Origin: Taxillus chinensis
Lineage: Eukaryota; Streptophyta; Magnoliopsida; Santalales; Loranthaceae
Reading direction: 5' to 3'
Assembly: GCA_023512835.1 (NCBI GenBank)
Contig: CM042087.1
Span: 6,516,550 to 6,580,549 of the forward strand
Length of the DNA: 64,000 nt
The notes under the pieces are model-generated. The model did not search any database, had not been told where the DNA came from, and worked only from the letters and a program-made list of their open reading frames with translations. A program made the translations under genes and the position numbers. Positions 1 to 64,000 of the stretch are shown here, in pieces (the stretch's first letter is position 1; every line of letters starts with the position of its first letter).

Positions 1-928
1 TGAGCAACCACAGCTCAGTAGGGATCATGTCTCCCCAACCCATCCCATGCCCCTAGCATCTACATGCCATGTGTACAAGTGCAGTGTCGTGTTACAATAA
101 TTTCAACGGACATAATAACAACCACATCAACAATTACAATCTTCCACCGCCACACAGGCTAACAAAACACATCTCAAGCAAGTAGTTTAACCGCCTCTTC
201 AGGCCATCGATTTAACCGCCTCTCAGGCAAAGTAGTTTAACCGCCTCTTCAAGCCCTTGGTTTAACCGCCTCTCAGGCAAAGTAGTTTAACCGCCTCTTC
301 AGGCCGGATGACACAATCATGCACACAACACACACCACGGTCACTCAAGCATAAAGCCAAACACTTGGTGTGCACCCGTTCACAAGTGCACAAACCCAGC
401 CATTCAGGCCATAGAACAAACACCCAAAGATACATACATACACTAAACCACAAGGCCAGCCACACGGACATATTACCAAACACGTAATGGGCATATACAC
501 ACAGCTAAATTCATACAGGCATTTCATCAAACATATAGCATGTAATCCACGGAATCACACCAAAATGCCATCAAGGCCAACATCCATATAGGAGATCACA
601 CCTATATGGATTACATATGTATATATAACAGATATAACCCATAATCTGCCCTAGAACCCTAGGACAGAGGAGGATTTCGGAAGAACAGAACCCCTAGCCT
701 CCTTGCATCATGTAGAAGACAACCACACTTGCACGTGAATTGGACCCATTTCACGTGCACCTCACATACACGTCTGTTTGGCCTGAAACTTCGTGGTAGA
801 TAGAGGACATCATTCTAAGCATCTTTCCTTTTGCACGTGAATTCATTGGAGTCCATTCACTAGGTCACAATCTAGAAAAACTCTACTCGAAGGCAAAACG
901 TGACTAACTCAAGGTACGGGTCCTTACA
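1..928 (-). repeat. 3' LTR of element 1 (partial)
   Basis: The segment ends CCTTACA at 928, directly against the polypurine tract, and matches 6788-7681 base for base apart from scattered changes. About 325 bases of the LTR lie left of the window. It holds the leader stem-loop (arms 583-592 and 601-610), five degenerate copies of a TTTAACCGCCTCTTCAGGC unit (about 184-305), and CACGTG boxes near 735-860. Compared with the element 3 LTR it lacks about 470 bases between AACAGAACCCCT and AGCCTCCTTGC (junction near 700), and with them the TATA box. Confidence 0.92.
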
Positions 929-6462: not shown

Positions 6463-7681
6463 TGTCACGCCCCGGATTTCCAACCCGAGGAAACCGGTAC
6501 GTGACTCCCCTTTACCCACACGAAGGGTAAAGGGGTTAGGATACAAACCAAGAATATCACATTTTAAACATCCACAACATTCAAGAAAGTAATGTTCATA
6601 AAAGCAATCCAAACCAGTTCATTACAACAAAATCCTTTCCAATCCCATCCTCACTAGGGTTACATCAATTCCCATAAGAAAAACAAAACTTAAATGGAAG
6701 AGAGTAAAAATAATTATGGTCTTCCACCTTGGTGTATCCACCTAACGCCTGTAAGTCCCCGGAAAACAAACAAACACGGTAGGAGGGGTGAGCAACCACA
6801 TCTCGGTAGGGATCATGTCTCCCCAACCCATCCCATGCCCCTAGCATCTACATGCCATGTGTACAAGTGCGGTGTCGTGTTACAATAATTTCAACAGACA
6901 TAATAACAACCACATCAACAATTACAATCTTCCACTGCCACACAAGCTAACAAAACACAACTCAAGCAAGTAGTTTAACCGCCTCTTCAGGCCATTGATT
7001 TAACCGCCTCTCAGGCAAAGTAGTTTAACCGCCTCTTCAGGCCACTTGGTTTAACCGCCTCTCCAGGCAAAGTAGTTTAACCGCCTCTTCAGGCCGGATG
7101 ACACGATCATGCACACAACACACACCACGGTCACTCAAGCATAAAGCCAAACACTTGGTGTGCACCCGTTCACAAGTGCACAAACCCGGCCATTCAGGCC
7201 ATAGAACAAACACCCAAGATACATACATACACTAAACCACAAGGCCAGCCACACGGACATATTACCAAACACGTAATGGGCATATACACACAGCTAAATT
7301 CATACGGGCATTTCATCAAACATATAGCATGTAATCCACAAATCACACCAAAATGCCACTGAAGGCCAACATCCATATAGGAGATCACACCTATAATCTG
7401 CCCTAGAACCCTAGGACAGAGGAGGATTTAGGAAGAACAGAACCCCTAGCCTCCTTGCATCATGTAGAAGACAACCACACTTGCACGTGAATTGGACCCA
7501 TTTCACGTGCACCTCACATACACGTCCGTTTGGCCTGAAACTTCGTGGTAGATAGAGGACATCATTCTAAGAATCTTTCCTTTTGCACGTGAATTCATTG
7601 GAGTCCATTCACTAGGTCACAATCTAGAAAAACTCTACTCGGAAGGCAAAACGTGACTAACTCAAGGTACGGGTCCTTACG
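6463..7681 (-). repeat. 5' LTR of element 1
   Basis: Starts TGTCACGCC on the plus strand and ends CCTTAC at 7680; base 7681 is G where the 3' LTR has A, so on the minus strand the element opens CGTAAGG rather than TGTAAGG. About 1.22 kb long against 1.70 kb for element 3. The same promoter-removing deletion as in the 3' LTR is present (junction near 7447). A further deletion of about 40 bases removes one arm of the leader stem-loop (near 7390). Tandem TTTAACCGCCTC units lie at 6970-7095. Confidence 0.93.
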
Positions 7682-20961: not shown

Positions 20962-23015
20962 TGTCACGTCCCGGATTTCCAACCCGAGGAGACCGGAACG
21001 TGACCCTCCCTTTACCCGGGTTTGCATAAAGGGGTTGGAACACAACATATGAATCACATTATATATCCGGAGACAAAACCAAATATTTATTAAGTTCAAA
21101 CATTACATTTATTACATTAAGCTCCACATTACAAGATCTCCCCACTGGGGTTACAAAGTTCATAAAAACAACAAAACTCAAGAACTATAAGCAAGCCACA
21201 AGTAGGTCTTCCTTGGTTCCACCTAATGCCTGTAGGTCCCTGTAAGAAAACAACACGATAGGAGGGGTGAGCAACCACAGCTCGGTAGGGATCATGTCTC
21301 CCCAACCCATCCCATGCTCCTAGAATCTACATGCCATGTGTACAAGTGCGGTGTCGTGATACAATAATTTCGATAGACATAATAAACAACCACATCAACA
21401 ATTACAATCTTCCACTGCCACACAGGCTAACACTTTAACCACAAGTGATTTAACCGCCTCTTCAGGCCAATGATTTACCCGCAAGTGATTTAACCGCCTC
21501 TTCAGGCCAATGATTTAACCGCAAGTGATTTAACCACCTCTTCAGGCCAATGATTTAACCGCCTCTCATGCATAGTTTCCACAGCCTCACAGGCTAACAC
21601 GATCACTCCTGGGCTTCCACGCCACCAGGTTCAATAGAACAGGCCCGGGCTTCCACGGCCACCGGGTGTATAAGCAAACACGCAACACACATGGCCATAT
21701 AGGCATAACATCAAACACTTAATATGCATGGTCACACAGGCATAACTTCAAACACTTAGCATGCATAGCCTCACAGGCATAACTTCAAAGACTTAGCAAG
21801 CATACATTCACAAACTCACAAATCCGGCCACACAGGTATATTATCAAACACGTTATAAGCATGTACACACAGGCATATTCACACGGACATTTTATCGAAC
21901 ATTTAACATGCACTAACCACCCAACATCGAAATCACACCAAAACGCCATCAAAGGCCAATATTCATATAGGAGGTCACACCTATATGAATTTACATATAA
22001 ATATTATAACAACAACCATAGAAACTCCGTAAAAACTACGCAGGGCTAACCCCAAAACAGACCGGGAAGGACAGAACCCCTACCTTAAAGAAGATCTTCC
22101 TTGTTCCCGCGCTAGACGCTGTCCTCCCCACGCAAGACGCCCGGCAAGACAACTAGCGACTCTCCTTCCTTCCCTCTCTCTAGCTGTCTCTCTCTCTACG
22201 ACGGCTGCAGCAGCTCTCTTTCCTTCACCTCTTTATATAGGTATCACAACATCAAAACAATGTAGTTTTGATTAAGTGAATCCCAAAGATCAAAACAACG
22301 TAGTTTTGATTGCACAAGCTACAATCTTTCCGCATCCAGACACGACAAAATATCCATAATTCCAACATGGTCCTTTGGGGAAAGATGATTAGAATAACAA
22401 AATGAAGGTGATCGTACAAAAATATGGCTGCACGCCATATCCCCAATTGGCGTGCAAGTCCAAATACCCTGAAATTCTACCCCAAGCTTCCTTGCATCAT
22501 GTAGAAGACAGGCAAACCAAACTCCCCTTGCACGCTATATCCCCAATTGGCGTGCATTATCACGTGCACCTCCCAAAAGTCTCCTCTTGGGCCCATCTCT
22601 TGCCTCAAACTTGTGCACCAACATCCAAGGTGTTTTAGCTAAAGTGTGTGGGAAGAAAACTCCCTAAAACCCAACAATTTCCACTCACAAGGCATCTGTG
22701 GTTAACTTCGTACATCTTGCAAAACACGGGTCATTACAAATCCGAGCTTGTTACTCATGCGGAGTAAGGATGTGCTAATATAGAGTAAGCCATCGGATCC
22801 TTTAACTCATGCGGAGTAAGGAACTCTTGCGGAGTAAGAAAGCCCTAATGTGGAGTAAGCACTCCGACCTTCTCATTCATATGGAGTAAGGAAGCACCGA
22901 CACGGAATAAGGATTCCTGTCTTGAATTGATATGGAGTAAGCAATCACTAACACGGAGTAAGCAATCACTAACACGGAGTAAGGATCCAAGCTTAGTTAA
23001 CACGGAGTAAGGAAC
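20640..23015 (+). repeat. Dispersed CGGAGTAAGG motif array (interrupted)
   Basis: About two dozen copies of a ten-base core, consensus CGGAGTAAGG with variants CGGAATAAGG, CGGACTAAGG and TGGAGTAAGC, spaced about 15-45 bases apart and always in the same orientation. Thirteen or so lie left and eleven or so lie right of the solo LTR. Spacers are mostly unrelated, but two neighbouring units share ACACGGAGTAAGCAATCACTA (near 22945-22980), which suggests growth by local duplication. Confidence 0.8.
20962..22738 (-). repeat. Solo LTR, chromovirus subfamily with TGTAATGACCC start
   Basis: Runs TGTCACGTCC to GGGTCATTACA (plus strand), flanked by a perfect 5-bp target duplication AATCC (20957-20961 and 22739-22743), with no internal region. 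A solo LTR of this kind forms by recombination between the two LTRs of a full element. Contents match the LTR of element 7: leader stem-loop with T-A pair (arms 21961-21971 and 21980-21990), TTTAACCGCCTC tandem units (21440-21570), TATA box on the minus strand (22233-22239), and two ATCAAAAC...GTTTTGAT palindromes (22250-22310). Confidence 0.95.
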
Positions 23016-24296: not shown

Positions 24297-25996
24297 TGTC
24301 ACGCCCCGGATTTCCAACCCGAGGAAACCGGCACGTGACTCCCCTTTTACCCACATGGAGGGCAAAGGGGTTAGGATACAAACCAAGAGTTTTATATTTC
24401 AAACATCCATAACACATTCAAGAAGGAAATATTCATAAAAATAATCCAAACCAGCTTATTACAACAGAATTCTTTCCAATCCCATCCCCACTGGGGTTAC
24501 ATCAGTTCCCATAAAAGAAAACAACATAAATGGAAGAGAGTAAAATGGTTAAGGTCTTCCACCTTGGTGCATCCACCTAACGCCTGTAAGTCCCTGGAAA
24601 ACAAGCAAACACGGTAGGAGGGGTGAGCAACCACGGCTCGATAGGGATCAAGTCTCCCCAACCCTTCCCATGCTCCTAGCGGCTACATGCATGTGCACAG
24701 GTGTAGTGACGTGTTACAACAATCTCAACAAACAATAACAAACCACATCGGTAGTCACAATTATCCACCACACAAAACACAAGTGATTTAACCGCCTCTT
24801 CAGGCCAAGTTATTTAACCGCCTCTTCAGGCCAAGTGATTTAACCGCCTCTTCAGGCCACTGGTTTAACCGCCTCTTAGGCAAAGTAGTTTAACCGCCTC
24901 TTCAGGCCAGTTACCACAGTCAGGCACACAACTTACACCACAGTCACACAAACATAAAACCAAACACTTGGTGTGCACCCGCTCACAAGTGCACAAACCC
25001 AGTCATTCAGGCAACAGAACACACACCCAGGATACATACATACACTAAATCACAAGTCCAGCCACACGGGCATATTATCAAACACGTAATGGGCATATAC
25101 ATACAGCTATATTCACACAGGCATTTCATCGAACACATAACATGTAATCCACGAAATCACACCAACATGCCACTGAAGGCCAACATTCATATAGGAGGTC
25201 ACACCTATATGAATTTACATATAAATAATATAACAGATATCTCATATTCTGCCCTAGGACCCTAGGACAGAGGAGGACTTAGGAAGAACAGAATCCCTAC
25301 CTCAAGGAAAACGCAACAACACAAAGAACGGTCCGATCCCAAGCCGAACGCCGTCCACCCACGAAGCACCGACCACCCACGCAAGACGCCCAGGCGGCAA
25401 CCAGGAGCTCTCCTTCCCTCTCTCTCTCTCTCTGCGATGGCCGGTGAAGCAACAAACCCTAAACCTAAAACAGAGGGACTCCTCCTCCTTATATAGACAA
25501 CACAACATCAAAACGACGTAGTTTTGATTAAGTGAATCCCAGGATCAAAACGACGTAGTTTTGATCACACAAGTTACCACCTTTCCGCACCCATATAGGC
25601 CAAAATACTCGGAATTTCAACATGGTCCTTTGGAGAAAGTTCCTTAGAATGACAAAACCAAGGGAACCATGCAAAAATATGGCTGCACGCCAATTTGCAC
25701 GTGAATTCCCAATTCACGTGCACCTCCATATGGACTCCAAATGCTCTCAAACTTCACCCCTAGCTTCCTTGCATCATTTAGAAGACAATTACACTTGCAC
25801 GTGAATTGGACCCATATCACGTGCACCTCACATACATGTCCATTTGGCCTGAAACTTCTGTGGTAGATAGAGGACATCATTCTAAGCATCTTTCCTTTTG
25901 CACGTGAATTCATTGGAGTCCATTTACTAGGTCAAAATCTAGAAAAACTCTACTCCCGGAGGTAAAACTGACTAACTCAAGGTACGGGTCCTTACA
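24297..25996 (-). repeat. 3' LTR of element 3
   Basis: TGTCACGCC to CCTTACA. Contains the leader stem-loop (25185-25195 and 25204-25214, T-A version), tandem TTTAACCGCCTCTTCAGGCC units (24783-24910), a CT microsatellite (25417-25433), the TATA box on the minus strand (25489-25495), two ATCAAAAC...GTTTTGAT palindromes (25506-25566), and inverted CACGTG pairs at 25697-25721 and 25797-25824. Confidence 0.96.
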
Positions 25997-31535: not shown

Positions 31536-33233
31536 TGTCACGCCCCGGATTTCCAACCCGAGGAAACCGGCACGTGACTCCCCTTTTACCCACATGGAGG
31601 GCAAAGGGGTTAGGATACAAACCAAGAGTTTTATATTTCAAACATCCATAACACATTCAAGAAGGAAATATTCATAAAAATAATCCAAACCAGTTTATTA
31701 CAACGAAATTCTTTCCAATCCCATCCCCACTGGGGTTACATCAGGTCCCATAAAAGAAAACAACATAAATGGAAGAGAGTAAAATGGTTAAGGTCTTCCA
31801 CCTTGGTGCATCCACCTAACGCCTGTAAGTCCCTGGAAAACAAGCAAACACAGTAGGAGGGGTGAGCAACCACAGCTCAGTAGGGATCAAGTCTCCCCAA
31901 CCCTTCCCATGCTCCTAGCGGCTACATGCATGTGCACAGGTGTAGTGACGTGTTACAACAATCTCAACAAACAATAACAAACCACATCAGTAGTCACAAT
32001 TATCCACCACACAAAACACAAGTGATTTAACCGCCTCTTCAGGCCAAGTTATTTAACCGCCTCTTCAGGCCAAGTGATTTAACCGCCTCTTTAGGCCCTT
32101 GGTTTAACCGCCTCTTAGGCAAAGTAGTTTAACCGCCTCTTCAGGCCGTTACCACAATCAGGCACACAACTTACACCACGGTCACACAAACATAAAACCA
32201 AACACTTGGTGTGCACCCGCTCACAAGTGCACAAACCCAATCATTCAGGCAACGGAACACACACCCAAAGATACATACATACACTAAATCACAAGTCCAG
32301 CCACACAGGCATATTATCAAACACGTAATGGGCATATACATACAGCTATATTCACACAGGCATTTCATCGAACACATAGCATGTAATCCACAGAATCACA
32401 CCAACTTGCCACTGAAGGCCAACATTCATATAGGAGGTCACACCTATATGAATTTACATATAAATAATATAACAGATATCTCATATTCTGCCCCAGGACC
32501 CTAGGACAGAGGAGGACTTAGGAAGAACAGAATCCCTACCTCAAGGAAAACGCAACAACACAGAGAACGGTCCGATCCCAAGCCGAACGCCGTCCACCCA
32601 CGAAGCACCGACCACCCACGCAAGACGCCCGGCAGCAACCAGGAGCTCTCCTTCCCTCTCTCTCTCTCTCTGCGACGGCTGGTGAAGCAACAAACCCTAA
32701 ACCTAAAACAGAGGGACTCCTCCTCCTTATATAGACAACACAACATCAAAACGACGTAGTTTTGATTAAGTGAATCCCAGGATCAAAACGACGTAGTTTT
32801 GATCACACAAGTTACCACCTTTCCGCACCCATATAGGCCAAAATACTCAGAATTTCAACATGGTCCTTTGGAGAAAGTTCCTTAGAATGACAAAACCAAG
32901 GGAACCATGCAAAAATATGGCTGCACGCCAATTTGCACGTGAATTCCCAATTCACGTGCACCTCCATATGGACTCCAAATGCTCTCAAACTTCACCCTTA
33001 GCTTCCTTGCATCATTTAGAAGACAATTACACTTGCACGTGAATTGGACCCATATCACGTGCACCTCACATATATGTCCATTTGGCCTGAAACTTCGTGG
33101 TAGATAGAGGACATCATTCTAAGCATCTTTCCTTTTGCACGTGAATTCATTGGAGTCCATTTACTAGGTCAAAATCTAGAAAAACTCTACTCCTGGAGGT
33201 AAAACCGACTAACTCAAGGTACGGGTCCTTACG
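31536..33233 (-). repeat. 5' LTR of element 3
   Basis: Nearly identical to 24297-25996 throughout. TATA box on the minus strand at 32727-32733, stem-loop arms 32424-32434 and 32443-32453, CT repeat near 32655-32671, inverted CACGTG pairs near 32935-32960 and 33035-33062. The first base on the minus strand is C. Confidence 0.96.
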
Positions 33234-34340: not shown

Positions 34341-34698
34341 TGGTGGCCCATTGTGCCATTAAGGAATGGGGATGATGGGTTAGTTGGCAACAATGAGGTT
34401 GCAAATGGTGACCGGCGCGGGGCGAGGGACCCTCGGTGTTATTGTTGCGATCACTAAGTTGCAAGTAGGATCATAGAGGATCAGTGGGGCACATTGATGT
34501 GAGGTCATTAGGGGCGGGATTCACACAGGGTAGGCATCTTCCGATTGGACCGAGGATGCAGAGCGTGTCATGCGGTATAGGGGTAGACGATAGTTCTCAC
34601 TTCTCTTTAAGAGGAGGTTCTTTGGGAATTTCACCAGTCACGGTTAGTTGTACAATCTGGTGTGACCAAGATATACCATGACGTGAGGAGACAATATT
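34341..34698 (+). pseudogene. Element 4 RH-IN spacer and integrase zinc-finger start
   Basis: Poorly conserved spacer, then YHDVRRQYW at the right edge, where the frame is cut by element 5 after the duplication ATATT (34694-34698). The Trp codon is split by the insertion and completed at 44139. Confidence 0.75.
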
Positions 34699-35263
34699 TG
34701 TAAGGACCCGTACCTTGAGTTAGTCACGCTTTTGCCTTCCGAGTAGAGTTTTTCTAGATTTTGACCTAGTAAATGGGCTCAAATGAATTCACGTGCAAAA
34801 GGAAAGATGCATAGAATGATGTCCTCTATCTACCACGAAGTTTCAGGCCAAACGGACGTGTATGTAAGGTGCACGTGAAATGGGTCCAATTCACGTGCAA
34901 GTGTGGTTGTCTTCTAAATGATGTAAGGAGGCTAGGGGTGAAGTTTGAGAGCATTTGGAGTGCATATGGAGTTGCACGTGAATTGGGAATTCACGTTCAA
35001 ATTGGCGTGCAGCCATATTTTTGCATGGTTCCCTTGGTTTTGACATTCTAATGATCTTTCTCCAAAGGACCATGTTGAAATTCCGAGTATTTTGGCCTAT
35101 ATGGGTGCGGAAAGGTGCTAACTTGTGTGATCAAAACTACGCCGTTTTGATCCTGGGTTTACTTAATCAAAACTACGTCGTTTTGATGTGGGTAGTGCCT
35201 ATATAATGAGGGCTTGAGTTTGAGTTTAGGGTTCTTGTGTTCTCCTTTGCTTGTAGCTACGCC

Positions 35264-35313
<50 letters not shown>

Positions 35314-36698
35314 CTCTAGGGCATTGCCGTGGTGGTTCGCGTCGTTGGGAGCTATCTAGCGTGGAGGTTAGGACAAAAGTCCGAGGTAGGGATTCATGTT
35401 CTTCCTAACTCTCATCTGTTCTAGGATATTCACCTATATATATATATATATGTAAATCCATATAGGTGTGATCTCCTATATGGATGTTGGCCTTCAGTGG
35501 CATGTTCTGTTGATTCTGATGTTGAATTTGGCCTGAGGATTTTTTTTGGGTTTGTTTATGCCCACCATGTGTTTGATGAAATGTCTGTGAGGCCTGCACA
35601 CTATGTGTTTGATGAAATGTCTGTGAGGCCTGCATGCCATGTATTCAATATAATGCCTGTGAGACCTTATAAATGGGTGTCTGATGATATACCTACGTGA
35701 CTGGTGTGTACTGTGTTTGATTTGTATTTGATTCTAAGCCTATGAGGCTGATGTGTGTGGCTTGTACCTGACCATGTTGGTCCCTCTGAAATAAAGTGTA
35801 AATGCTTGTCTTGAGTTTACATGTTGAGATGTAATGCTATGCTATTTTGTTGGTCTATTTGAGACCGAAGCCGAGATATGGGCCAGGCACAATAGCTGGA
35901 CCCCTTTGAGATTTGGCCAGGACGTGGTCCTGAGTCTCGGTGTAGCACTCACGACGGTGGGCTAAGTCTACACCCATTCCTGAGGGTAGGTATGGCGCCC
36001 GAGGAGGTGGTTGACCATATCTGACTCGGGTGGAAAATGTTGCATTGGTGTCCATGCAACATTCGCCTGGATGTGGTATGTCATGTCGCCGTGGTGGCGG
36101 GGTGTCCTCTGCCCTCCGGTGCGGGCTCGGGTAAAGAGTGTTTACTGGGTGATGTTTGCTTGCTTTAGCCTTAGGCACGACAATAGCACAAGCATACACA
36201 TATCATGCATGTTGTAGAGCGGGACGGGTCCTGGGGAGCCTGGATCCCCTCTTGAGCTATGGTTTGCTCACCCCTCCTATAAATTGTTCTTTGGCGGGGT
36301 TTAGTAGGCGGTAGGTGAAGGCCGAGGAGCTAGGCCCCTGGGGCTGGGAGTTTTATGCTATTTCCTTTGTTGTACTTTGGTTTTATGTTCTGGAATTTGG
36401 TTTGGTTTTATTTGTAACAAGACACCTGGCTTCATAGGGGTTTTTCCTCGACTGGGTTGTAATAAACATTTAGTCTTTGAAATGAAATAAAATGAGATGT
36501 TGTTATTCAATTTGTGTTTGTGTGCATGGTTTGGGAGCAGGAGCATGCCCCTTGGCATGTTAGCCTGGTTGTGCAGGTTTGGGACAGCACCCGTGCCAGA
36601 AGTCCTTTTTAGGTGCTTGCACCAACCCCTTGTCCCTTCGGGTGCGGGCATGGGCAGTCACTACTCATTTCCAAGTGGAAGGAAATTGGGGCGTGACA
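34699..36698 (+). repeat. 5' LTR of element 5
   Basis: TGTAAGGACCC to GGGGCGTGACA. U3 has CACGTG boxes at about 34789, 34873, 34892 and 34975 and two ATCAAAAC...GTTTTGAT palindromes (near 35132 and 35165). The TATA box is TATATAAT at 35201-35208. The leader has a GA microsatellite of 47 bases (35266-35312), a TA run, the stem-loop (35456-35466 and 35475-35485), and tandem GTGTTTGATGAAATGTCTGT units (35565-35660). Poly(A) signals of the form AATAAA lie at 36461 and 36486. Confidence 0.96.
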
Positions 36699-36701
36699 AT
36701 A

Positions 36702-36713
36702 TGGTATCAGAGC
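36702..36713 (+). other. Primer-binding site of element 5
   Basis: TGGTATCAGAGC, a perfect initiator-Met site, three bases after the LTR end. The following 442 bases (36714-37155) are leader without other features. Confidence 0.95.
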
Positions 36714-37155
36714 GATAGTTCAGGGTCTAGTGGACCTAGGATAGTGGGGAGGCCTGGGCCGCTTCGAGACTCTTAGGAGGCGGTATAGGACACGCCTGAT
36801 CAACGTGGTCCTATCTGGTTTTCTGGGGTGTACTCAGGGGGTAGTTAGACCAAGGAGTAGGGCACTTGCATTTGGGTTGAGGGTGCATACATGCATTGGC
36901 ATTAGGGCACTAGTTTAATTTCAGTATGAGTATATGCTGTGTTGCTGAAAACTTGTTGCTAAAAACAAAATTTTGTTGCTGTGAAATTCGGTGATTTTCT
37001 GTGAGACTTGTTGCTATGAATTGCTGTTGTGTGCTTCGTAATTTACCTGTGTGTTTAAATGTAAAACGTTGCTTGAGTACCTCATGGCCCATGGGGATGA
37101 GGGTGTGTAGAGCTTGAGAGAAGCTTATCCTAGTTTGGTTTAAATGATGTAGACT

Positions 37156-42158: not shown

Positions 42159-44133
42159 TGTAAGGACCCGTACCTTGAGTTAGTCACGCTTTGCCTTCCG
42201 AGTAGAGTTTTTCTAGATTTTGACCTAGTGAATGGGCTCAAATGAATTCACGTGCAAAAGGAAAGATGCTTAGAATGATGTCCTCTAACTACCACGAAGT
42301 TTCAGGCCAAACGGACGTGTATGTAAGGTGCACGTGAAATGGGTCCAATTCACGTGCAAGTGTGGTTGTCTTCTAAATGATGCAAGGAGGCTAGGGGTGA
42401 AGTTTGAGAGCATTTGGAGTGCATATGGAGTTGCACGTGAATTGGGAATTCACGTTCAAATTGGCATGCAGCCATATTTTTGCATGGTTCCCTTGGTTTT
42501 GACATTCTAATGATCTTTCTCCAAAGGACCATGTTGAAACTCTAAGTATTTTGGCCTATATGGGTGCGGAAAGGTGCTAACTTGTGTGATCAAAACTACG
42601 TCGTTTTGATCCTGGGTTTACTTAATCAAAACTATGTCGTTTTGATGTGGGTAGTGCCTATATAATGAGGGCTTGAGTTTGAGTTTAGGGTTCTTGTGTT
42701 CTCCTTTGCTGCAGCTGCTGCCAGAGAGAGAGAGAGAGAGAGAGAGAGGATCTCCGGGCTGTTGCCGTGGTGGTTCGCGTCGTTGGGAGCTGTCTAGCGT
42801 GGAGGTTAGGACAAAAGTCTGAGGTAGGGAATCATGTTCTTCCTAACTCTCATCTGTTCTAGGATATTCACCTATATATATATATATATAAATCCATATA
42901 GGTGTGATCTCCTATATGGATGTTGGCCTTCGGTGGCATGTTCCGTTGATTCGATGTTGAATTTGGCCTGAGGATTTTTTTTGGGTTTGTTTATGCCCAC
43001 CATGTGTTTGATGAAATGTCTGTGAGGCCTGCACACTATGTGTTTGATGAAATGTCTGTGAGGCCTGCATGCCATGTATTCAATATAATGCCTGTGAGAC
43101 CTTATAAATGGGTGTCAGATGATATACCTACGTGACTGGTGTGTACTGTGTTTGATTTGTATTTGATTCTAAGCCTATGAGGCTGATGTGTGTGGCTTGT
43201 ACCTGACCATGTTGGTCCCTCCGAAATAAAGTGTAAATGCTTGTCTTAGGTTTACATGTTGAGATGTAATGCTATGCTATTTTGTTGGTCTGTTTGAGAC
43301 CGAGGCGAGATATGGGCCAGGCACAATAGCTGGACCCCTTTGAGATTTGGCCAGGACGTGGTCCTGAGTCTCGGTGTAGCACTCACGACGGTGGGCTAAG
43401 TCTACACCCATTCCTGAGGGTAGGTATGGCGCCCGAGGAGGTGGTTGACCATATCTGACTCGGGTGGAAAATGTTGCATTGGTGTCCATGCAACATTCGC
43501 CTGGATGTGGTATGTCATGTCGCCGTGGTGGCGGGGTGTCCTCTCGCCCTCCAGGTGCGGGCTCAGGTAAAGAGTGTTTCCTGGGTGATGTTTGCTGCTT
43601 TAGCCTTAGGCACGACAATAAGACAAGCATACACATATCATGCATGTTGTAGAGCGGGACGGGTCCGGGGGAGACTGGATCCCTACTGAGCTATGGTTTG
43701 CTCACCCCTCCTATAAACTGTTCTTTTGCAGGGTTTAGTAGGCGGTAGGTGAAGGCTGAGGAGCTAGGCCCCTGGGGCTGGGAGTTTTATGCTATTTCCT
43801 TTGTTGTACTTTGGTTTTATGTTCTGGAATTTGGTTTGGTTTTATTTGTAACAGTACACCTGGCTTCATAGGGGTTTTTCCCCGACTGGGTTGTAATAAA
43901 CATTTAGTCTTTGAAATGAAATAAAATGAGATGTTGTTATTCAATTTGTGTTTGTGTGCATGGTTTGGGAGCAGGAGCATGCCCCTTGGCATGTTAGCCT
44001 GGTTGTGCAAGGTTTGGGACAGCACCCGTGCCAGAAGTCCTTTTTAGGTGCTTGCACCAACCCCTTGTCCCTTCGGGTGTGGGCATGGGCAGTCACTACT
44101 CATTTCCAAATGGAAGGAAATTGGGGCGTGACA
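42159..44133 (+). repeat. 3' LTR of element 5
   Basis: Collinear with 34699-36698 and nearly identical. It is shorter mainly because the GA repeat has fewer units (42722-42749). TATA box 42659-42666, stem-loop arms 42892-42902 and 42911-42921. Confidence 0.96.
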
Positions 44134-46207: not shown

Positions 46208-49200
46208 TGTAATGACCCATGTATTGGAATGTGAGGAGTTAGTCATTGACCCGTAAAAATTGTGTCTATAGGTTTTGCGGCAAGTGCACCTGGTCAAGTA
46301 ATAAAATGGAGTATTAAGACTCGGTTATCGAACTCACAGGGAGGTAGCTAATGCCGTTAAGCAACAAACACTAAGCTAATAAGTTGATTTTATGTCTGGA
46401 CAATTGATTTTTCTTATACAAATAGTTTGAACGAAAAATGATTAAATTAGAATGTTGGCAAGCTATTGGTATAGAAATTTCAGTGATTAAGAATCTAGGG
46501 TCACAATGTTTACCACTCAATCGATTGTACTAGTCCTGGTTATGGCTCTTGTTCTTGATTTATGTTCTAGTTCATGTTCATGTTGATTATCTCCTGCCTA
46601 TCTTACATTTGGTCCATGCTAAGATAGACTTAAGGCTTTTATCTCATTTGGTCCATGTTAATAAAAGTAATCAAGGTAGATAAACAATCTAATAGTTGCA
46701 GACTTGGTCCATCATGCAATATTAAATCTAATTCACTAATGTTCCACCCTAAACAAGGGCTACGATTACCTAATTATGCATAAACTAGGCATTTCCATAC
46801 AAGCAAGTGAATTAAACAAGAACTGAATTCTATTTTATTGAACAACCATAACCAAACTGAATACAATTTATTGGGGGCTACATTGCTCCCCTAGACTAAC
46901 AAAACTACTCCATAATCATGACAAAAGCAATAACAATTTCGAGAAAGAACATGATTACGGTGACCAGGACAATAAAGGAAGACCCCAAGATGAACCAGGA
47001 CTCCGGCCTCCAAAGACTCCAGCGTCTGCGCCCAAAATCACTCCTTGCCAAGGACAATCCGATCTTTTAGCAACGGCTCAGCCTCTTTTCGAACTCAGAT
47101 CAGATTCTCCCACTCAAGATGATTTACAATGCCTCCAAAGACCCCTATTTATAGGATTTAGTGGGCCAAATTAGGGTTACAAAAGGTGTGCCCTAATTAT
47201 AAATGTGGTCGCAGCCAAAACGACGTCGTTTTGGTAAGTGACACTATTCGACGTTCTAGGCGCAATAAAACTCAAACTACACCAAATTTGACCCCAGTTC
47301 TTTAGAGGAAAATGATTAAAACAACAAAACACATCATTTGGAGCTCAAAAATGCCTGCACGCGAGAATGAACGTGAGAAGACCCTTTTCACGTGCGGCTC
47401 CAATTCGACTCAAATTTGCTCCAAAGCTTCCTCTTGAGTTGTAGAAGGCATCCATGCAATAAAATCCTTGCACGTGAGAATGCACGTGAGAAAGCCTTTT
47501 CACGTGCACCTTGATTTTGCCTTCATTTTGTTTCCATCTTCTTCCTATAGCTTCCTCTTGAGTGTATGGAGTGATCTAACCAAAGTGTGTGAAAAGGTTG
47601 CTCCAAAACCTGCCAAAAACACTCAAAAAGTACCACTATACACCAAACAGGGTCTTCCTAGGGGTTAGAGCAAATATGCGTAAAATATCATGCAAATAGG
47701 TACAAAACATACGTTAAAACACCCTATATAAGGTCTAGGATAACGTCATAAATGCACGTTATTAGTCACCGTTATGCCTTTTGAGTAGCAATTGTCGGTT
47801 TTTGGGAGTTTTCTTTCCACACACATTGTCTAGATCACTTTGAATATAGATGAGCAAGCATGAGGCAAAAGATGAGCTCAAGAGGGAACATATTGAGGTT
47901 ACACGTGACAATGGCTTTGTCACGTGCGGTGGTGTTTTTGCATGGGAGCCTTCCAGACTAAGTTATAAAGCTTGTGGCAAAATCTTAGGCCATTTGGAGC
48001 TTGCACGTGACAATGGTCTTTGTCACGTGTAGCCATGTTTTTGAACCATCACCTTGGTTTTGTTATTATAATAATCTTTTCATAAAGGGACATGTTTGAA
48101 TTATGGGTATTTTGTCATATGTCGATGCGGGAAGGTTGTAGCATGTTTTAATGAAAACTACATCGTTTTGATGATGGGGTTCACTTAATCAAAACTACGT
48201 CATTTTGATGTTGTGGTGTCTATATAAGGAGGTAGAGACCTCTTCTATTGGGGTTTTAGGGTTCATTCGCCGCGGCTATCACGAGAGAGAGAGAGAGAGG
48301 GAGATTGGGAGAGAGAGCTCCCGATCGTGGGCTGTCGTGGTTGTTCCCGTGGTTGCATGGCGTTTGGCGTGGAAGCAAGAGCGTGAGGATCCTTTGAGGT
48401 AGGGGTTCTGTCTCTTCTAGTACCCATTCGGGGGTTAGGCCCTGTGGTAGATGATTTGTAGAGTATCGTCGTTGTCTTTATAATATATATATATATATAT
48501 TGTAAATCCATATAGGTGTGATCTTCTATATGGATGTTGGCCTTCAATGGCATGTTTCATTTTATTCGACGTTGAGTCCGAGGTATGGGAACTCTCGGGG
48601 GTTCGTTTCGGGCTGGGGGCCTTAGAGGCCGTTGGGATGTCTATGGTTCGTTAGGCTTCGTTCCTTTGTAGGATTACGTGGGAAACCTTGGGGTTTCCGG
48701 GAGGGGGGGGGGGGGAATATACTTGATATAATGATTGTTGATCCAGATGCATACTATGTGTTTGTTTGTATGCCTGTGTGGCCGAGACGCATGTTATGTG
48801 TTTGATTGTATGCCTGTGTGGCTGAGATGTATGCTATGTGTTTGATTGTATGCCTAAGTGGCTGAGATGTATGTTATGTGTTTGATTATATGCCTGTGTG
48901 TGGCTGAGATTGGAGCCTGTGTGCCTGGAGCCTTCGAGGTGGTTATGGGGCCTAGTGGCTATGGAAGCCCGTGGTTGGTTATGGAGCCCGGTGGGTGTGT
49001 CAATGGTTGTACTGTTGATGTGGCTTGTTTGTGTATAAATGTTGATTATGGCCTGTCTGTATAGTATTGCCATGACACCGCACTTGTGCACGTCAACATG
49101 TAGTTGTTAGGAGCATGCTATGGGTTGGGGAGACATGATCCCTACTGAGCCGTGGTTGCTCACCCCTCCCATTGTGTTTTGTTAAGTTTTCAGGAACCTA

Positions 49201-51403: not shown

Positions 51404-53148
51404 TGTAATGACCCGTGTTTTGGGTAGAACAAGCTGGAACGAAGATGAACAATACCTTGGGCGAACGCTTGGGTCGAAAGGTGGAAGACCCGAAGATTTG
51501 GGTCGTAGGGTCGAAGACCGATGGTCGAAGTTCGAAGGTTTGAGGGTCGAAAGTTAGATCTTCGAGATAGATCTTCGAGGCCGCGTTTCCAGCTAATCTT
51601 CGAAGGAGTGTTTCTACGAGTCTTCGTGGCTTGGTTGTTAGAGAGTGTAATGAGCTCAAGTGGGAGCGTGTAGAGGCTGCGTGTGACAATGACCATGTTC
51701 GGATTGTGGGTATTTTGTCCTGTGTGGAAGCGGAGTGGTTAGTTCATGTTTGATTTATCAAAACTACGTCGTTTTGATGGTGTGTTTCATTTATCAAAAC
51801 TACGTCGTTTTGATGGTGTGTTTCATTTATCAAAACTACGTCGTTTTGATGGTGGGATTTCATTTATCAAAACTACGTCGTTTTGATGGTGGGATTTCAT
51901 TTATCAAAACTACGTCGTTTTGATAAGTGAGGTCTATATAAAGAGGAGCTCTCTTTATTTTAGGTTTAGGGTTTTTGTTGTCAGCCGCCGCAGCCGTCAC
52001 GAGAGAGAGAGAGGGAGATTGAGAGAGAGGGCTCCGGTTCATGGTCTGTCGTTGTCATTCCCGTGGTTGGACAGCATTAAGCGTGGAGGCAAGAGCGTGG
52101 AGGATCTTTGAGGTAGGGGTTCTGTCTTTCCTGGTATGTTCCGGGGTTAGGCCCTGTGGATATTTTGTAAAGTTTCCATTGTTATTGCTATAATACTTAC
52201 ATGTAAATTCATATAGGTGTGATCTCCTATATGAATGTTCGCCTTCAATGGCGATTTTGGTGTGTTTTTGGTGTTCGTGTGATGCATGAAAAGTGTTCGA
52301 TAAAATGCCTGTGTGACATGCCTGCTACATGTTTGAGAAAATGCCTGTGCGGCCGGGTTTATGAGTCTGTGAATTTATGCACACCAATTGCTTGGTTTTA
52401 TACCTGTGAGGCTTTGCATGCTAAGTGTTCGATGTTATGTCTGTGTGACTAAGTGTGGCTGTCTTGTGTTCTTGGAACCCGGTGGTCGTGGAAGCCCGGG
52501 ACTGTTCTTGGAACCCGGTGGCCGTGGAAGCCCGGGATCTGTTCTTGGGACCCGGTGGTCGTGGAAGCCTGGGACTGTTCTTGGAACCCGGTGGTCGTGG
52601 AAGCCCGGGACTGTTCTTGGAACCCGGTGGTCGTGGAAGCCCGGGAGTGTTTATGTACCAGCCCGTGTATGATTGTATTTGTTTGTTATAGCCGGTAATT
52701 ATATCTGGTAGAATAATTGTAGCACGACACAACAGCTTGTACACAAGGCATGTAGATATTAGGTGCATGGGATGGGTTGGGGAGACATGATCCCTACTTG
52801 AGTTGTGGTTGCTCACCCCTCCTACCATGTTGTTTTCTTTACAGGAACCTACGGGCGTTAGGTGGGAACACCAAGGTGGAAGTCCTCCTTGTGGCTTGCT
52901 CATCATTATTTTGGGTTATCTTGCTTTTCTTTTTGTAACTTTGTAACCCCGGGGGAGATTGTAATGTGGAGTTCAATGTAATAAAAGTGTGTTTTGAACG
53001 TATTTGCTATGTTTGGACTCAATAAATATAAGGTTGTTCTCTGAATATAAAATGTGAGGTGTATGTTGTATTCCAACCCCTCTATCCAACTTGGGTAAAG
53101 GGAGGGTCACGTTCCGGTCTCCTCGGGTTGGAAATCCGGGGCGTGACA
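51404..53148 (+). repeat. Solo LTR with five tandem ACGT palindromes
   Basis: TGTAATGACCC to GGGGCGTGACA, 1745 bases, flanks CTCAT (51399-51403) and CTCGC (53149-53153), so the target duplication is imperfect. After the start is a block of GTCGAAG-type repeats (51470-51640). Then come five copies of the 22-base palindrome with ATCAAAAC and GTTTTGAT arms (51757, 51793, 51829, 51866, 51903), directly followed by TATATAAAG (51935-51943). The stem-loop arms are 52206-52216 and 52225-52235. A 36-base minisatellite of about five units fills 52468-52645. Poly(A)-type AATAAA lies near 53020. Confidence 0.9.
52468..52645 (+). repeat. 36-bp minisatellite (CCCGGTGG...GAAGCCCGGG) in LTR leader
   Basis: About five head-to-tail units of 35-37 bases, each with GGAACCCGGTGG and GTGGAAGCCCGGG, differing by single bases. 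Open frames across it are a product of the repeat and not genes. Confidence 0.92.
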
Positions 53149-55996: not shown

Positions 55997-57684
55997 TGTA
56001 ATGACCCGTGTTTTGGAATGTGAAGAGTTAATCACCGTTATGCCTTTTGAGTGGCAATTATCAGGTTTTTGGGAGTTTTCTTTCCACACACATTGGCTAG
56101 ATCACTTTGAATATAAATAAGCAAGCATGAAGCAAAAGATGAGCTCAAAAGGGAACATATTGAGGTTGCACCTGACAATGGCTTTGTCACGTGCGGTGGT
56201 GTTTTTTGCATGGGAGCCTTCCAGGACTAAGTTGTAAAGCTTGTGGCAAAATCTTAGGCCATTTGGAACTTGCACGTGACAATGGCCTTTGTCACGTGCA
56301 ACCATATTTTTGCACCATCACCTTGGTTTTATTATTCTAATAATCTTTTCCCAAAGCGACATGTTTGAATTATGGGTATTTTGTCATGTGTGGACGCAGG
56401 AAGGTTGTAGCATGTTTTAATCAAAACTACGTCGTTTTGATGATGGGGTTCACTTAATCAAAACTACGTCATTTTGATGTTGTGGTCTTTATATAAAGAG
56501 GTGGAGACCACTTGTGTTGGGGTTTTAGGGTTCATCCGCCGCTGCCGTTGCAGAGAGAGGGAGGGAGATTGGGAGAAAGAGCTCCCGATCGTGGCTGCCG
56601 TGGTGGTTCCCGTTGTTGGACGGCGTTTGGCGTGGAAGCAAGAGCGTGAAGGATCCTTCTTAGGTAGGGGTTCTGTCTCTTCTAGTACCTATTCCGGGGT
56701 TAAGCCCTGTGGTGAATGATTTGTAGAGTATCGTCGTTGTTTTTAAAATATATATTTGTAAATCCATATAGGTGCGATCTCCTATATGGATGTTGGCCTT
56801 CAATGGCATGTTTCGTTTGATTCGACGTTGAGTCCGGGGGTATGGGAACTCTCGGGGTTCGTTGCGGGGTTATGGGCCTTAGAGACCATTGGGATGTCCG
56901 TGGTTCGTTAGGCTTGATTCCGTTGTAGGATCACATGGGAAAACTTGGGGTTTCCGGGGGGGGGGATATACTTGATATAATGATTGTTGATCCGGATGCA
57001 TGCTATGTATTTGATTGTATGCCTGTGTGGCCGAGATGCATGCTATGTGTTTGATTGTATGCCTGTGTGGCCGAGACTTATGCTATGTGTTTGATTGTAT
57101 GCCTGAGTGGCCGAGATATATGCTATGTATTTGATTGTATGCCTATGTGGCCGGAGCCTTCGAGGCTGGTTATGGGGCCTGGTGGCTATGGAAGCCCGTG
57201 CCTAGTTATGGAGCCCGATGGCCGTGGAAGCCCATGGATGGTTATGGAGCCCCGTGGTTGTGGAAGCCCATGGCTGGTTATGGAGCCCGGTGGTTGTGGA
57301 AGCCCGTGGCTGGTTATGGAGCACGGTGGTGTGGAAGCATGTGGCTGGTTATGGAGCCCAGTGGGCTGTGTAAGCGCGTGGATGGTTATGGAGCCTGTGT
57401 GGCTGTGGCAATGGTTGTACATGTTGATGTGGTTTGTTTGTGTATAAATGTTGATTATGGCCTGTCTGTATAGTATCGCCACGACATCGCACTCGTGCAC
57501 ATCAACATGTAGATGTTAGGAGCATGGGATGGGTTAGGGAGACATGATCCCTACCGAGCCGTGGTTGCTTAACCCTCCCGTTGTGTTTTGTTTAATTTTC
57601 AGGAACCTACAGGCGTTAGGTAGGAACACCAAGTTGGAAGACAGTTATGCTTTATTGCTTTGTTTAATATTATTTTGTGGTTAT
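55997..57684 (+). repeat. 3' LTR of element 6, left piece
   Basis: Aligns with 46208-49275 without the 1.5-kb insertion. CACGTG pairs near 56180 (one arm mutated) and 56275; TATA box 56490-56497; stem-loop arms 56762-56772 and 56781-56791; GTTTGATTGTATGCCTGTG units 57005-57150; expanded 36-base minisatellite 57150-57410. It is cut at TTAT by the Ogre-family solo LTR. Confidence 0.92.
57150..57410 (+). repeat. Expanded minisatellite in 3' LTR of element 6
   Basis: About seven to eight units of roughly 36 bases (GGTTATGGAGCCCGGTGG / GTGGAAGCCCGTGG). The matching place in the 5' LTR (48935-49005) has about two units, so the array changed length after insertion or between template LTRs. Confidence 0.9.
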
Positions 57685-61217: not shown

Positions 61218-62387
61218 TGTCACGCCCCGAATTTCCAACCCGAGGAGACCAGGAATGTGACCCTCCCTTTACCCGAGTTTGGATAAAGGGGGTAGAATAC
61301 AACATGGCCACACAGGACACCATACACTTCACATTTTATATTTAGAGAGACAAAATCATATATTTATTAAACTCAAACTTTACAAATGTGTCCAAAACAT
61401 GCTTTTATTACATCACACGCCTCATTACAACATCTCCCCGCTGGGGTTACATCAATTTCCATAAATTAACATAAACGAAAAGAAATGGTAAAGCAAATAC
61501 GGTCTTCCACCTCGGGATTCCACCTAACGCCTGTAGGTTCCTGAAAGAAAACACATCACAAGTAGGAGGGGTGAGCAACCACAGCTCGGTAGGGATCAAG
61601 TCTCCCCCAACCCATCCCATGCACCTATCATCTACATGAGAGCGTGTACCAGGTGCGATGATGTGGCAAAAACAAATAGCATGGAAACACACCACACAAA
61701 CGGGCACAACCTTAGCCCCACCTACACAGGCTCCACGGCCCCATAGGCTAACACTTTAACCACCCCAAGCAAGTGATTTAACCGCCTCTTCAGGCCAATG
61801 ATTTAACCGCAAGTGATTTAATCGCCTCTTCAGGCCAATGATTTAACCGCCTCTCAGGCAAATAGTTCTCACAGCCTTCACAGGCTAACATAAACAGTCC
61901 CGGGCTTCCACAGCTACCAGGTGTACAAGCAAACACGCAGCACACATGGCCATACAGGCATAATATCAAACACTTAACATGCGTAGTCACACAGGCATAA
62001 CTTCAAACACTTAGCATGCGTACATTCATAAACTCACAAATCCAGCCACACCAGCATATTATCAAACATGTACTAGGTATATTCACACAGGCATTTTATC
62101 GAACATTTAACATGCACTAACCACCCAACGTCGAATCACACCAAGACGCCATTGAAGGCCAACATTCATATAGGAGATCACACTTATATGAATTTGCATA
62201 TAAATATTATAGCAACAACAATAGAAACTCTGCAAATCTCCTACACAGGGCCTAACCCCGGGACAGACCAGGAAAGATAGAACCCCTACCTTAACAGATT
62301 CCTTCATGCCTTAGCCTCCACGCCAAACGCCGTCCATTCACGGAAACACCACCGCAAAGAACTACGACTAGAAGCTCTTCTTCCTTC

Positions 62388-63498: not shown

Positions 63499-64000
63499 TG
63501 TAAGGACCCGTACCTTGAGTTAGTCGTTTTACCTCCGGAGTAGAGTTTTTCTAGATTTTGACCTAGTAAATGGACTCCAATGAATTCACGTGCAAAAGGA
63601 AAGATGCTTAGAATGATGTCCTCTATCTACCACAGAAGTTTCAGGCCAAATGGACATGTATGTGAGGTGCACGTGATATGGGTCCAATTCACGTGCAAGT
63701 GTAATTGTCTTCTAAATGATGCAAGGAAGCTAGGGGTGAAGTTTGAGAGCATTTGGAGTCCATATGGAGGTGCACGTGAATTGGGAATTCACGTGCAAAT
63801 TGGCGTGCAGCCATATTTTTGCATGGTTCCCTTGGTTTTGTCATTCTAAGGAACTTTCTCCAAAGGACCATGTTGAAATTCCGAGTATTTTGGCCTATAT
63901 GGGTGCGGAAAGGTGGTAACTTGTGTGATCAAAACTACGTCGTTTTGATCCTGGGATTCACTTAATCAAAACTACGTCGTTTTGATGTTGTGTTGTCTAT
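63499..64000 (+). repeat. 5' LTR (or solo LTR) of element 8, partial
   Basis: TGTAAGGACCCGTACC onward, matching the element 3 LTR (reverse complement of 25500-25996) almost base for base, including GTAGTAAATGGACTCCAATG-type U3 sequence. Inverted CACGTG pairs lie near 63669-63697 and 63770-63800, and both ATCAAAAC...GTTTTGAT palindromes are present (63928-63949 and 63965-63986). The window ends just before the TATA box. Confidence 0.93.

What the first reader, a model, noticed from the sequence alone, without database searches (positions are those of the whole stretch)
35456..35485. Conserved stem-loop with compensatory pair change in the LTR leader
In the transcribed leader, about 240 bases after the TATA box, at least ten LTR copies carry an 11-bp inverted repeat with an 8-base loop (sense TGTGATCT or TGTGACCT). 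Arms are ATCCATATAGG / CCTATATGGAT in element 1 (582-611), element 5 (35456 and 42892) and element 6 (48506, 56762). They are ATTCATATAGG / CCTATATGAAT in element 3 (25185, 32424) and in the LTRs at 21961, 52206 and 62164. The C-G pair is replaced by T-A on both arms together, in two LTR subfamilies. One arm change at 48525 still allows G-U pairing. Flanking sequence is less conserved. A selected RNA structure (packaging, dimerisation, strand transfer or translation control) is inferred.
Basis: partly seen in the sequence, partly recalled or inferred. Interest (0 to 1): 0.8.

Follow-up and report, generated by a model that had tools for sequence, protein, structure and literature searches.

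The report
Conserved hairpin in plant retrotransposon leader
A very abundant family of jumping genes in a plant genome carries, in the stretch read into RNA before its first protein, a short hairpin-forming sequence whose two arms have changed together repeatedly, probably because the RNA of the element needs it, although a role in the DNA itself is not ruled out.

Summary
The stem-loop is real. It is among the most conserved 30 bases of a divergent LTR. The window's 521-Mb genome holds 11,225 exact core copies. At the variable pair, both-arm states (C-G 5,956; T-A at most 4,991, by subtraction) dwarf single-arm states (T-G 202, C-A 76). On a tree of 80 copies, 6 of 7 well-supported contrasts change both arms. 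But promoter inverted repeats of the same LTRs co-change as strictly, and wobble against mismatch changes at four core pairs match flank mutation bias. So selection on RNA is likely, not proven. New context: from the inferred start to a conserved AG|GTAGGG, 65-132 nt before the stem, AUG is rare (24 seen, 257 expected), and TGTAG precedes the gag AUG in 13 of 13 recognised starts. I infer a leader intron holding hairpin and PBS, marking unspliced genomic RNA as retroviral packaging signals do.

The parts
35456..35466 (+). 5' arm of the stem (ATCCATATAGG), element 5, left LTR
35467..35474 (+). 8-base loop TGTGATCT (sixth base T or C in the genome: 74 T and 15 C in 89 exact-core copies)
35475..35485 (+). 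3' arm of the stem (CCTATATGGAT)
35486..35501 (+). largely conserved 3' flank GTTGGCCTTCAGTGGC (possible 3-bp GCC/GGC hairpin with variable loop)
   Evidence: the small hairpin is a reading, not tested
35450..35455 (+). ATGTAA at the base of the stem (AUG-stop, or A-rich signal); in 77 of the 90 loci rows printed, of which 10 rows repeat places of other rows and 30 were chosen for the C-A state
35200..35206 (+). TATA box, element 5 left LTR; transcription start inferred about 30 nt downstream
   Evidence: TSS inferred
35384..35391 (+). AGGTAGGG, candidate splice donor AG|GTAGGG
   Evidence: once within 330 nt upstream of the stem in 96 of 110 copies; splicing not tested
36702..36713 (+). primer binding site TGGTATCAGAGC just after the LTR of element 5
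37148..37152 (+). TGTAG, candidate splice acceptor 3 nt before the gag AUG at 37156
   Evidence: 13 of 13 recognised gag starts; 22 stretches examined
42892..42921 (+). stem-loop, right LTR of element 5, perfect
582..611 (-). stem-loop, element 1, C-G form, perfect
7371..7400 (-). element 1, other LTR: 5' arm mostly deleted
21961..21990 (-). stem-loop, T-A form, loop C, perfect
25185..25214 (-). stem-loop, element 3, T-A form, loop C, perfect
32424..32453 (-). stem-loop, element 3, T-A form, loop C, perfect
48506..48535 (+). stem-loop, element 6, C-G form, one G-U pair
52207..52236 (+). stem-loop, T-A form, loop T, perfect
56762..56791 (+). stem-loop, element 6, C-G form, perfect stem, loop TGCGATCT
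62164..62193 (-). stem-loop, T-A form, one A.C mismatch in sense

Best explanation
The 30-base stem-loop and about 20 flanking bases are a cis-acting element of the transcribed part of the LTR of a plant Ty3/gypsy family, most likely working as folded RNA. SHOWN: conservation, very high copy number, joint change of both arms on several well-supported branches. INFERRED: the transcript has a leader intron whose donor is AG|GTAGGG, 65-132 nt before the stem, and whose acceptor is TGTAG just before the gag AUG. The spliced RNA would have a short, AUG-poor leader and serve as mRNA; the unspliced RNA would keep the hairpin and the PBS and serve as genome. Placed just past the donor, the hairpin would be recognised only on unspliced RNA, most probably by Gag or a host protein for packaging or retention, or by the splicing machinery to hold back splicing. 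The protein partner and the step are guesses.
For: Conservation 0.92 mean pairwise identity over 6 LTR representatives, 4 of 2,091 windows higher. 11,225 core copies, 0 of the reversed control. Pair 3: C-G 5,956, T-G 202, C-A 76, the rest at most 4,991 (the T-A pattern itself did not complete). Tree from flanks of 80 copies: C-G against the other states needs 9 changes, 7 forced by starred branches, two T-G copies included; in 7 independent contrasts on starred branches the second arm goes the same way in 6 (5 in some pairings), never opposite, median p 0.031; the loop base between the arms follows in 2.3 on average. Spacer 8 in 10 of 10 window copies that have both arms, unlike U3 repeats; genome patterns fixed the spacer, so it is untested there. 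Same state in both LTRs of an element: T-G 15 pairs to 70 singles in the first 100 of 202 places, C-A 4 pairs to 68 singles in all 76, Fisher p 0.026. ATG from inferred start to donor: 24 seen, 257 expected by shuffling, in 89 copies. TGTAG before gag in 13 of 13. The isolated 30-mer folds with mean stem probability 0.80-0.96.
Against: U3 inverted repeats, upstream of the promoter, show joint arm change too: 70 concordant, 2 discordant. Wobble-type against mirror mismatch-type changes at four core pairs: 507 to 327, ratio 1.55, no more than flank bias (C>T/G>A 1.67, A>G/T>C 1.12; p 0.65 against 1.5). In about 560 nt of sense context the stem is predicted lost in 2 of 10 window copies (S22, S62) and weak in E1 (0.33); in about 960 nt E6b also drops to 0.16; antisense folds at 0.87-0.98 in all 10. 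Only pair 3 varies; pairs 1-2 never vary in 89 exact-core copies. Some elements transposed with a C-A mismatch (4 pairs). Spacer and loop types recur in different clades, so block exchange between LTRs may inflate the number of switches. Against the intron: AUG is still below expectation between donor and stem (55 seen, 127 expected; 48 of 96 copies none) and only reaches it in the bin -60 to -31, so depletion does not end exactly at the donor. No transcript data: start, splicing and poly(A) sites are inferred.
Confidence: 0.5

Rival explanations
1. A DNA-level dyad: the inverted repeat is a binding site for a dimeric transcription or chromatin factor downstream of the start site, like the CACGTG inverted repeats in U3.
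For: The same LTRs keep several perfect inverted repeats in U3 whose arms change together. Core changes show no wobble preference above mutation bias. Antisense folds at least as well.
Against: CACG-type U3 repeats have spacers of 3-22 while the leader spacer is 8 in 10 of 10 window copies with both arms. T-G is commoner than C-A at pair 3 (202 to 76; p 0.0008 against a 1.7:1 bias, but copies are related). A half-site model does not explain why C and T are each accepted mostly with the matching partner.
Confidence: 0.25
2. Mutational upkeep: template switching of reverse transcriptase within the hairpin (quasipalindrome correction, recalled), or exchange of the whole block between LTR lineages, makes the arms match without selection for pairing.
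For: U3 repeats also match. Upstream spacer types and loop base recur in different clades, as block exchange would give.
Against: It does not explain why this block is among the most conserved parts of the LTR. The loop base, which lies between the arms, follows the arms in only 2.3 of 7 contrasts, though donors with the same loop would hide this. A tree from the nearest 60 bases on each side still needs 9 changes of state, with 5 of 6 contrasts concordant, p 0.0625.
Confidence: 0.15
3. A ribosome-shunt-like configuration: AUG-UAA ends at the base of the stem, as the first uORF of plant pararetrovirus leaders ends before a stem.
For: ATGTAA touches the stem in 77 of 90 rows. AUG stays below expectation in part of the stretch between donor and stem. 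Shunt configuration described in passages of PMC5902531.
Against: ATGTAA is the first AUG in only 34 of 96 copies; 47 have an earlier AUG and 15 lack it. AUG is back at the expected level from -60, before the stem. The stem spans 30 nt and leaves about 1 kb of AUG-rich LTR to cross.
Confidence: 0.07
4. Ordinary leftover: inherited similarity of young copies plus chance, no function.
For: Copies are numerous and many lie as LTR pairs.
Against: Over six LTR representatives most windows score between 0.2 and 0.65, gaps counted as differences, while the hairpin scores 0.92; chance expectation 0.18 sites per window.
Confidence: 0.03

Closest known systems
Retroviral packaging and dimerisation hairpins downstream of the major splice donor (HIV-1 type)
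   Same: Short stem-loop in the 5' part of the genomic RNA, after a (here predicted) splice donor, absent from spliced RNA. Recalled for HIV-1; not tested here.
   Different: The loop is not a palindrome kept in all lineages: GATC in most copies, GACC in 15 of 89 exact-core copies.
Ty3 dimerisation site PAL6 (yeast Ty3/gypsy; passages of PMC11381356)
   Same: Same superfamily; palindromic cis sequence near the 5' end of the genomic RNA, placed in a short hairpin.
   Different: PAL6 is a 6-nt palindrome in the apical part of a hairpin; here the palindromic part is the stem.
Plant pararetrovirus leader (shunt stem, packaging signal, splice donor; passages of PMC5902531)
   Same: Plant host, leader stem preceded by a short uORF, Met-tRNA PBS, splice donor in the leader.
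   Different: Those leaders fold in one large stem-loop; here an 11-bp stem, and AUG is back at the expected level before the stem.
BARE retrotransposon of barley (passages of PMC3735527)
   Same: Plant LTR element with separate RNA pools for translation and packaging, one pool spliced.
   Different: Copia superfamily; two TATA boxes and a 104-nt intron in gag; no leader intron in the passages seen.
Intron-containing plant elements Ogre and EVADE (passage of PMC12786077)
   Same: Plant LTR elements with functional introns.
   Different: The passage says that plant LTR elements generally lack introns and names these two as exceptions; a leader intron of a family like this one is not named in the passages seen.

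Membership tests
Ty3/gypsy LTR retrotransposon (Metaviridae) | gag, protease, RT, RNase H and integrase domains between LTRs | tested here: met
   Pfam on five pieces of elements 1 and 3: PF03732, PF08284, PF00078, PF17919, PF24626 (the integrase catalytic core was not among the hits); LTR pairs; PBS TGGTATCAGAGC (its tRNA, initiator Met, is recalled)
Del/Tekay lineage of plant chromoviruses | chromodomain at the integrase C-terminus and place in an RT tree | not tested
   No chromodomain family among the hits of the integrase piece at E 0.001; a likeness of its end to a chromodomain is recall only; no RT tree was built
Structured RNA with covariation support | compensatory changes beyond phylogeny | tested here: inconclusive
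   Pair 3: 6 of 7 contrasts, p 0.031, but one pair only, and the U3 repeats behave alike; R-scape not available
Structured RNA with covariation support | G-U tolerated better than mismatch in sense | tested here: inconclusive
   Four core pairs at mutation baseline; pair 3 suggestive; of the other half of the core test one pattern was asked and not answered, its mirror was not asked
Retroviral-type dimer initiation site | self-complementary loop kept across lineages | tested here: not met
   Loop GATC in 74 and GACC in 15 of 89 exact-core copies; GACC also in two window lineages
Pararetrovirus-type ribosome shunt | 5'-proximal uORF ending before the stem | tested here: inconclusive
   ATGTAA at the stem in most copies but first AUG in only 34 of 96
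Known Rfam RNA family | score above a gathering threshold | tested here: not met
   Window 34600-36800 only: one match, mir-3688, 21.4 bits against a gathering score of 84
Leader intron | spliced transcripts | not testable with these tools
   No RNA reads held; sequence signals only

The most novel reading that the evidence does not exclude
A plant Ty3/gypsy family separates messenger from genome by a leader intron: splicing joins a short AUG-poor exon to the gag AUG and removes hairpin and PBS, and the co-varying hairpin just past the donor is the packaging or retention signal of the unspliced genomic RNA. It would be a psi-like arrangement in a plant Ty3/gypsy element.
Probability: 0.18. Interest if true: 0.75.

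Novelty: new member of a known kind. Interest (0 to 1): 0.5.

Why it matters
Cis-acting RNA signals of plant Ty3/gypsy elements are, to my knowledge, hardly known, although such elements make up much of many plant genomes. An element present in over 11,000 exact core copies of one genome, with a natural series of paired and unpaired variants, gives a ready test of which RNA structures a retrotransposon needs. The predicted leader intron would offer a simple answer to how one transcript serves both as mRNA and as genome.

Tried and rejected
Relatives elsewhere: exact pattern in viral contigs 0 hits; looser pattern 7 contigs whose loops and flanks are unlike these; U3 motif 0; RT piece, 2 stretches matched a pattern and none was confirmed; Gag piece in the protein set, 2 distant hits. 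No other species was compared. Kissing-loop dimerisation by the loop: rejected as a general rule because of the GACC loops. Conserved uORF peptide starting in the 3' arm: rejected from reading the window copies (frame shifted in E1, stop in S22). Nearest Rfam match is noise. The wobble test was meant to be decisive; its other half (wobble changes in the 5' arm, asked, and their mirror, not asked), the T-A count and an unbiased pattern anchored on the flanks got no answer, so these counts are missing. Samples are not unbiased: fetched copies were found by exact core, 30 of them by the C-A state; the 89 lie in the first 3 Mb of contig C1. The 110 copies include the 30 C-A copies, as do half of the 60; one search counts several matches per copy and is not corrected for kinship. 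In one search one row (L048) had a three-base offset; that alignment was not used. In one search the script took a wrong TATA box for element 6 left. Papers: searches showed no paper on such a hairpin or leader intron in the titles and abstract openings listed; PMC3601003, PMC12786077, PMC3735527, PMC5902531 and PMC11381356 were seen as passages, all others as listing only. This is weak evidence of novelty.

Full report
OBSERVATION. The core CATATAGG-N8-CCTATATG occurs 11 times in the window with up to 3 mismatches, against 0.18 expected. The copies lie in LTRs of seven lineages as I group them, on both strands. Pieces of two elements carry Ty3/gypsy domains. In 8 of the 9 LTRs examined the stem starts 201-280 nt after the inferred start site (TATA+32); for the ninth, element 6 left, the script took a wrong TATA box.

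CONSERVATION. In an alignment of 11 LTR copies, six representatives agree at 0.92 mean pairwise identity over the hairpin, and 4 of 2,091 windows of 30 bases score higher; most windows lie between 0.2 and 0.65 with gaps counted as differences, the block around the TATA box and the palindromes before it near 0.8. TGTAA before the stem and GTTGGCCTTCARTGGC after it are largely kept as well, with many small changes in the latter.

GENOME-WIDE COUNTS. The window lies in a held genome of 521 Mb. The exact core with loop TGTGAYCT occurs 5,716 + 5,509 = 11,225 times, the reversed control never. At the third pair: C-G 5,956, T-G 202, C-A 76. The T-A pattern did not complete; by subtraction T-A is at most 4,991, and in 89 exact-core copies nothing but C-G (60), T-A (27) and T-G (2) was seen. 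Single-arm states are thus 278 of 11,225. The tool warns that counts of large families can be lower bounds, and also says that the printed counts are whole.

COVARIATION ON A TREE. From 80 copies (10 in the window, 70 fetched) a tree was built from up to 330 bases on each side without the hairpin. C-G against the other states needs 9 changes, 7 forced by starred branches; all three states together need 10, two of them for the two T-G copies. Among 7 independent contrasts on starred branches, the other arm changes the same way in 6 (5 in some of 200 pairings), the opposite way in 0, and not in 1 (median p 0.031, range 0.031-0.0625); the loop base follows in 2.3, opposes in 0.8 and is unchanged in 3.9. 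A tree from 60 bases each side still needs 9 changes, with 5 of 6 contrasts concordant (p 0.0625). Exchange of the block between LTR lineages could inflate this, since spacer and loop types recur in different clades.

IS IT RNA? In double-stranded DNA each wobble-making change has a mirror change of equal context that makes a mismatch in the sense RNA. In the core, wobble-type changes in the 3' arm gave 11,732 - 11,225 = 507 and their mirrors 11,552 - 11,225 = 327, ratio 1.55. This differs from 1:1 (p 5e-10), but flank changes show a strand bias of 1.67 for C>T over G>A and 1.12 for A>G over T>C, so 1.55 is no excess (p 0.65 against 1.5, 0.30 against 1.67). The other half of the test did not complete. 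At pair 3, T-G exceeds C-A 202 to 76 (p 0.0008 against 1.7:1, but copies are related). Split by listed places, copies that come as same-strand neighbours 5.5-10 kb apart, hence probably present at insertion, are 15 pairs to 70 singles for T-G (first 100 of 202 places) and 4 to 68 for C-A (all 76): Fisher p 0.026. This hints that wobble is tolerated in transposing RNA more than mismatch; whether the T-G pairs are independent lineages was not tested. Against the RNA reading, U3 inverted repeats with CACGTG or CACGCC arms are concordant in 70 of 72 matches in 60 copies, with spacers of 3-22. Joint arm change is therefore a habit of this LTR family and not proof of RNA. The leader stem differs by its spacer of 8 in all 10 window copies with both arms and by its conserved loop. 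Folding: mean stem probability 0.80-0.96 alone; in about 560 nt, 0.00 in S22 and S62, 0.33 in E1, 0.80-0.98 in the other seven; in about 960 nt E6b drops to 0.16; antisense 0.87-0.98 in all ten.

LEADER CONTEXT. In 89 copies with a TATA box and AGGTAGGG, the stretch between inferred start and this octamer holds 24 ATG where shuffling gives 257, and 68 of 89 copies have none. In 30-base bins over 110 copies the ratio of seen to expected is 0.13-0.36 from -240 to -61 before the stem, 1.09 from -60 to -31, 1.92 in the last 30 bases (which hold ATGTAA), 2.2-3.3 in the first 300 bases after the stem and 0.98-2.4 beyond. From the octamer to 8 bases before the stem there are still fewer ATG than expected (55 to 127; 48 of 96 copies have none), so the depletion runs some 25 bases past the octamer. 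The octamer occurs once in 96 of 110 copies, 65 to 132 nt before the stem in the 89. Of 22 stretches read behind an LTR, 13 have a recognisable gag start, all 13 with TGTAG 3 or 5 nt before the AUG and with several AUGs upstream; these 13 fall in two sequence groups, so they are not 13 independent cases. The simplest reading is a leader intron from AG|GTAGGG to TGTAG|, removing hairpin and PBS. This is an inference without RNA data. AATAAA in the last part of the LTR in S22, E5, S52, S62 and one copy of E3 suggests a long R region that contains the hairpin.

MECHANISM. If the intron is real, the hairpin is a mark of unspliced RNA. Packaging or retention through Gag or a host protein is my first guess, control of splicing the second. 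Loop kissing is unlikely as a rule, since the loop palindrome GATC is GACC in 15 of 89 copies. Ribosome shunting is possible (ATGTAA at the stem base) but ATGTAA is the first AUG in only 34 of 96 copies.

KNOWN WORK. Ty3 has a palindromic dimerisation site in its 5' region, plant pararetroviruses combine stem, uORF, donor and PBS in the leader, BARE separates RNA pools, and plant LTR elements are said generally to lack introns apart from cases such as Ogre and EVADE. None of the passages seen describes this hairpin. The lineage name Del/Tekay was not tested.

VERDICT. A real, strongly conserved and repeatedly co-changing hairpin, probably a genomic-RNA element of a known kind in a new setting; the RNA reading is favoured, not proven.

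Noticed in passing
LTR U3, e.g. 25696-25722, 32934-32960, 56270-56301, 63771-63797: Perfect inverted repeats with CACGTG cores (G-box-like, name recalled) in U3; in other copies the arms read GCACGCCA/TGGCGTGC, changing together, spacers 3-22.
   Followed up: partly
35129-35188 and equivalents in other LTR lineages: Repeated ATCAAAAC-N6-GTTTTGAT palindromes just upstream of the TATA box; five copies in the LTR around 52207.
   Followed up: no
1-938 and 6463-7691: Both LTRs of element 1 lack the same segment that holds the TATA box in other lineages, so this element would have been copied without it.
   Followed up: no
35384-35391 and 37148-37152: Candidate leader intron: AUG-poor first exon, AG|GTAGGG, and TGTAG before the gag AUG.
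   Followed up: partly
35450-35455: AUG-UAA start-stop touching the stem base in most rows examined, either as ATGTAA before the stem or with its last A shared with the stem.
   Followed up: partly
48667-48940 and 56916-57189: Tandem 40-base repeats inside the element 6 LTRs; a 37-base tandem occurs at 21664-21879 and 61919-62134.
   Followed up: no
flanks of the hairpin, 110 sampled copies: Sense-strand bias of changes in LTR flanks: C>T 0.032 per site against G>A 0.019.
   Followed up: partly
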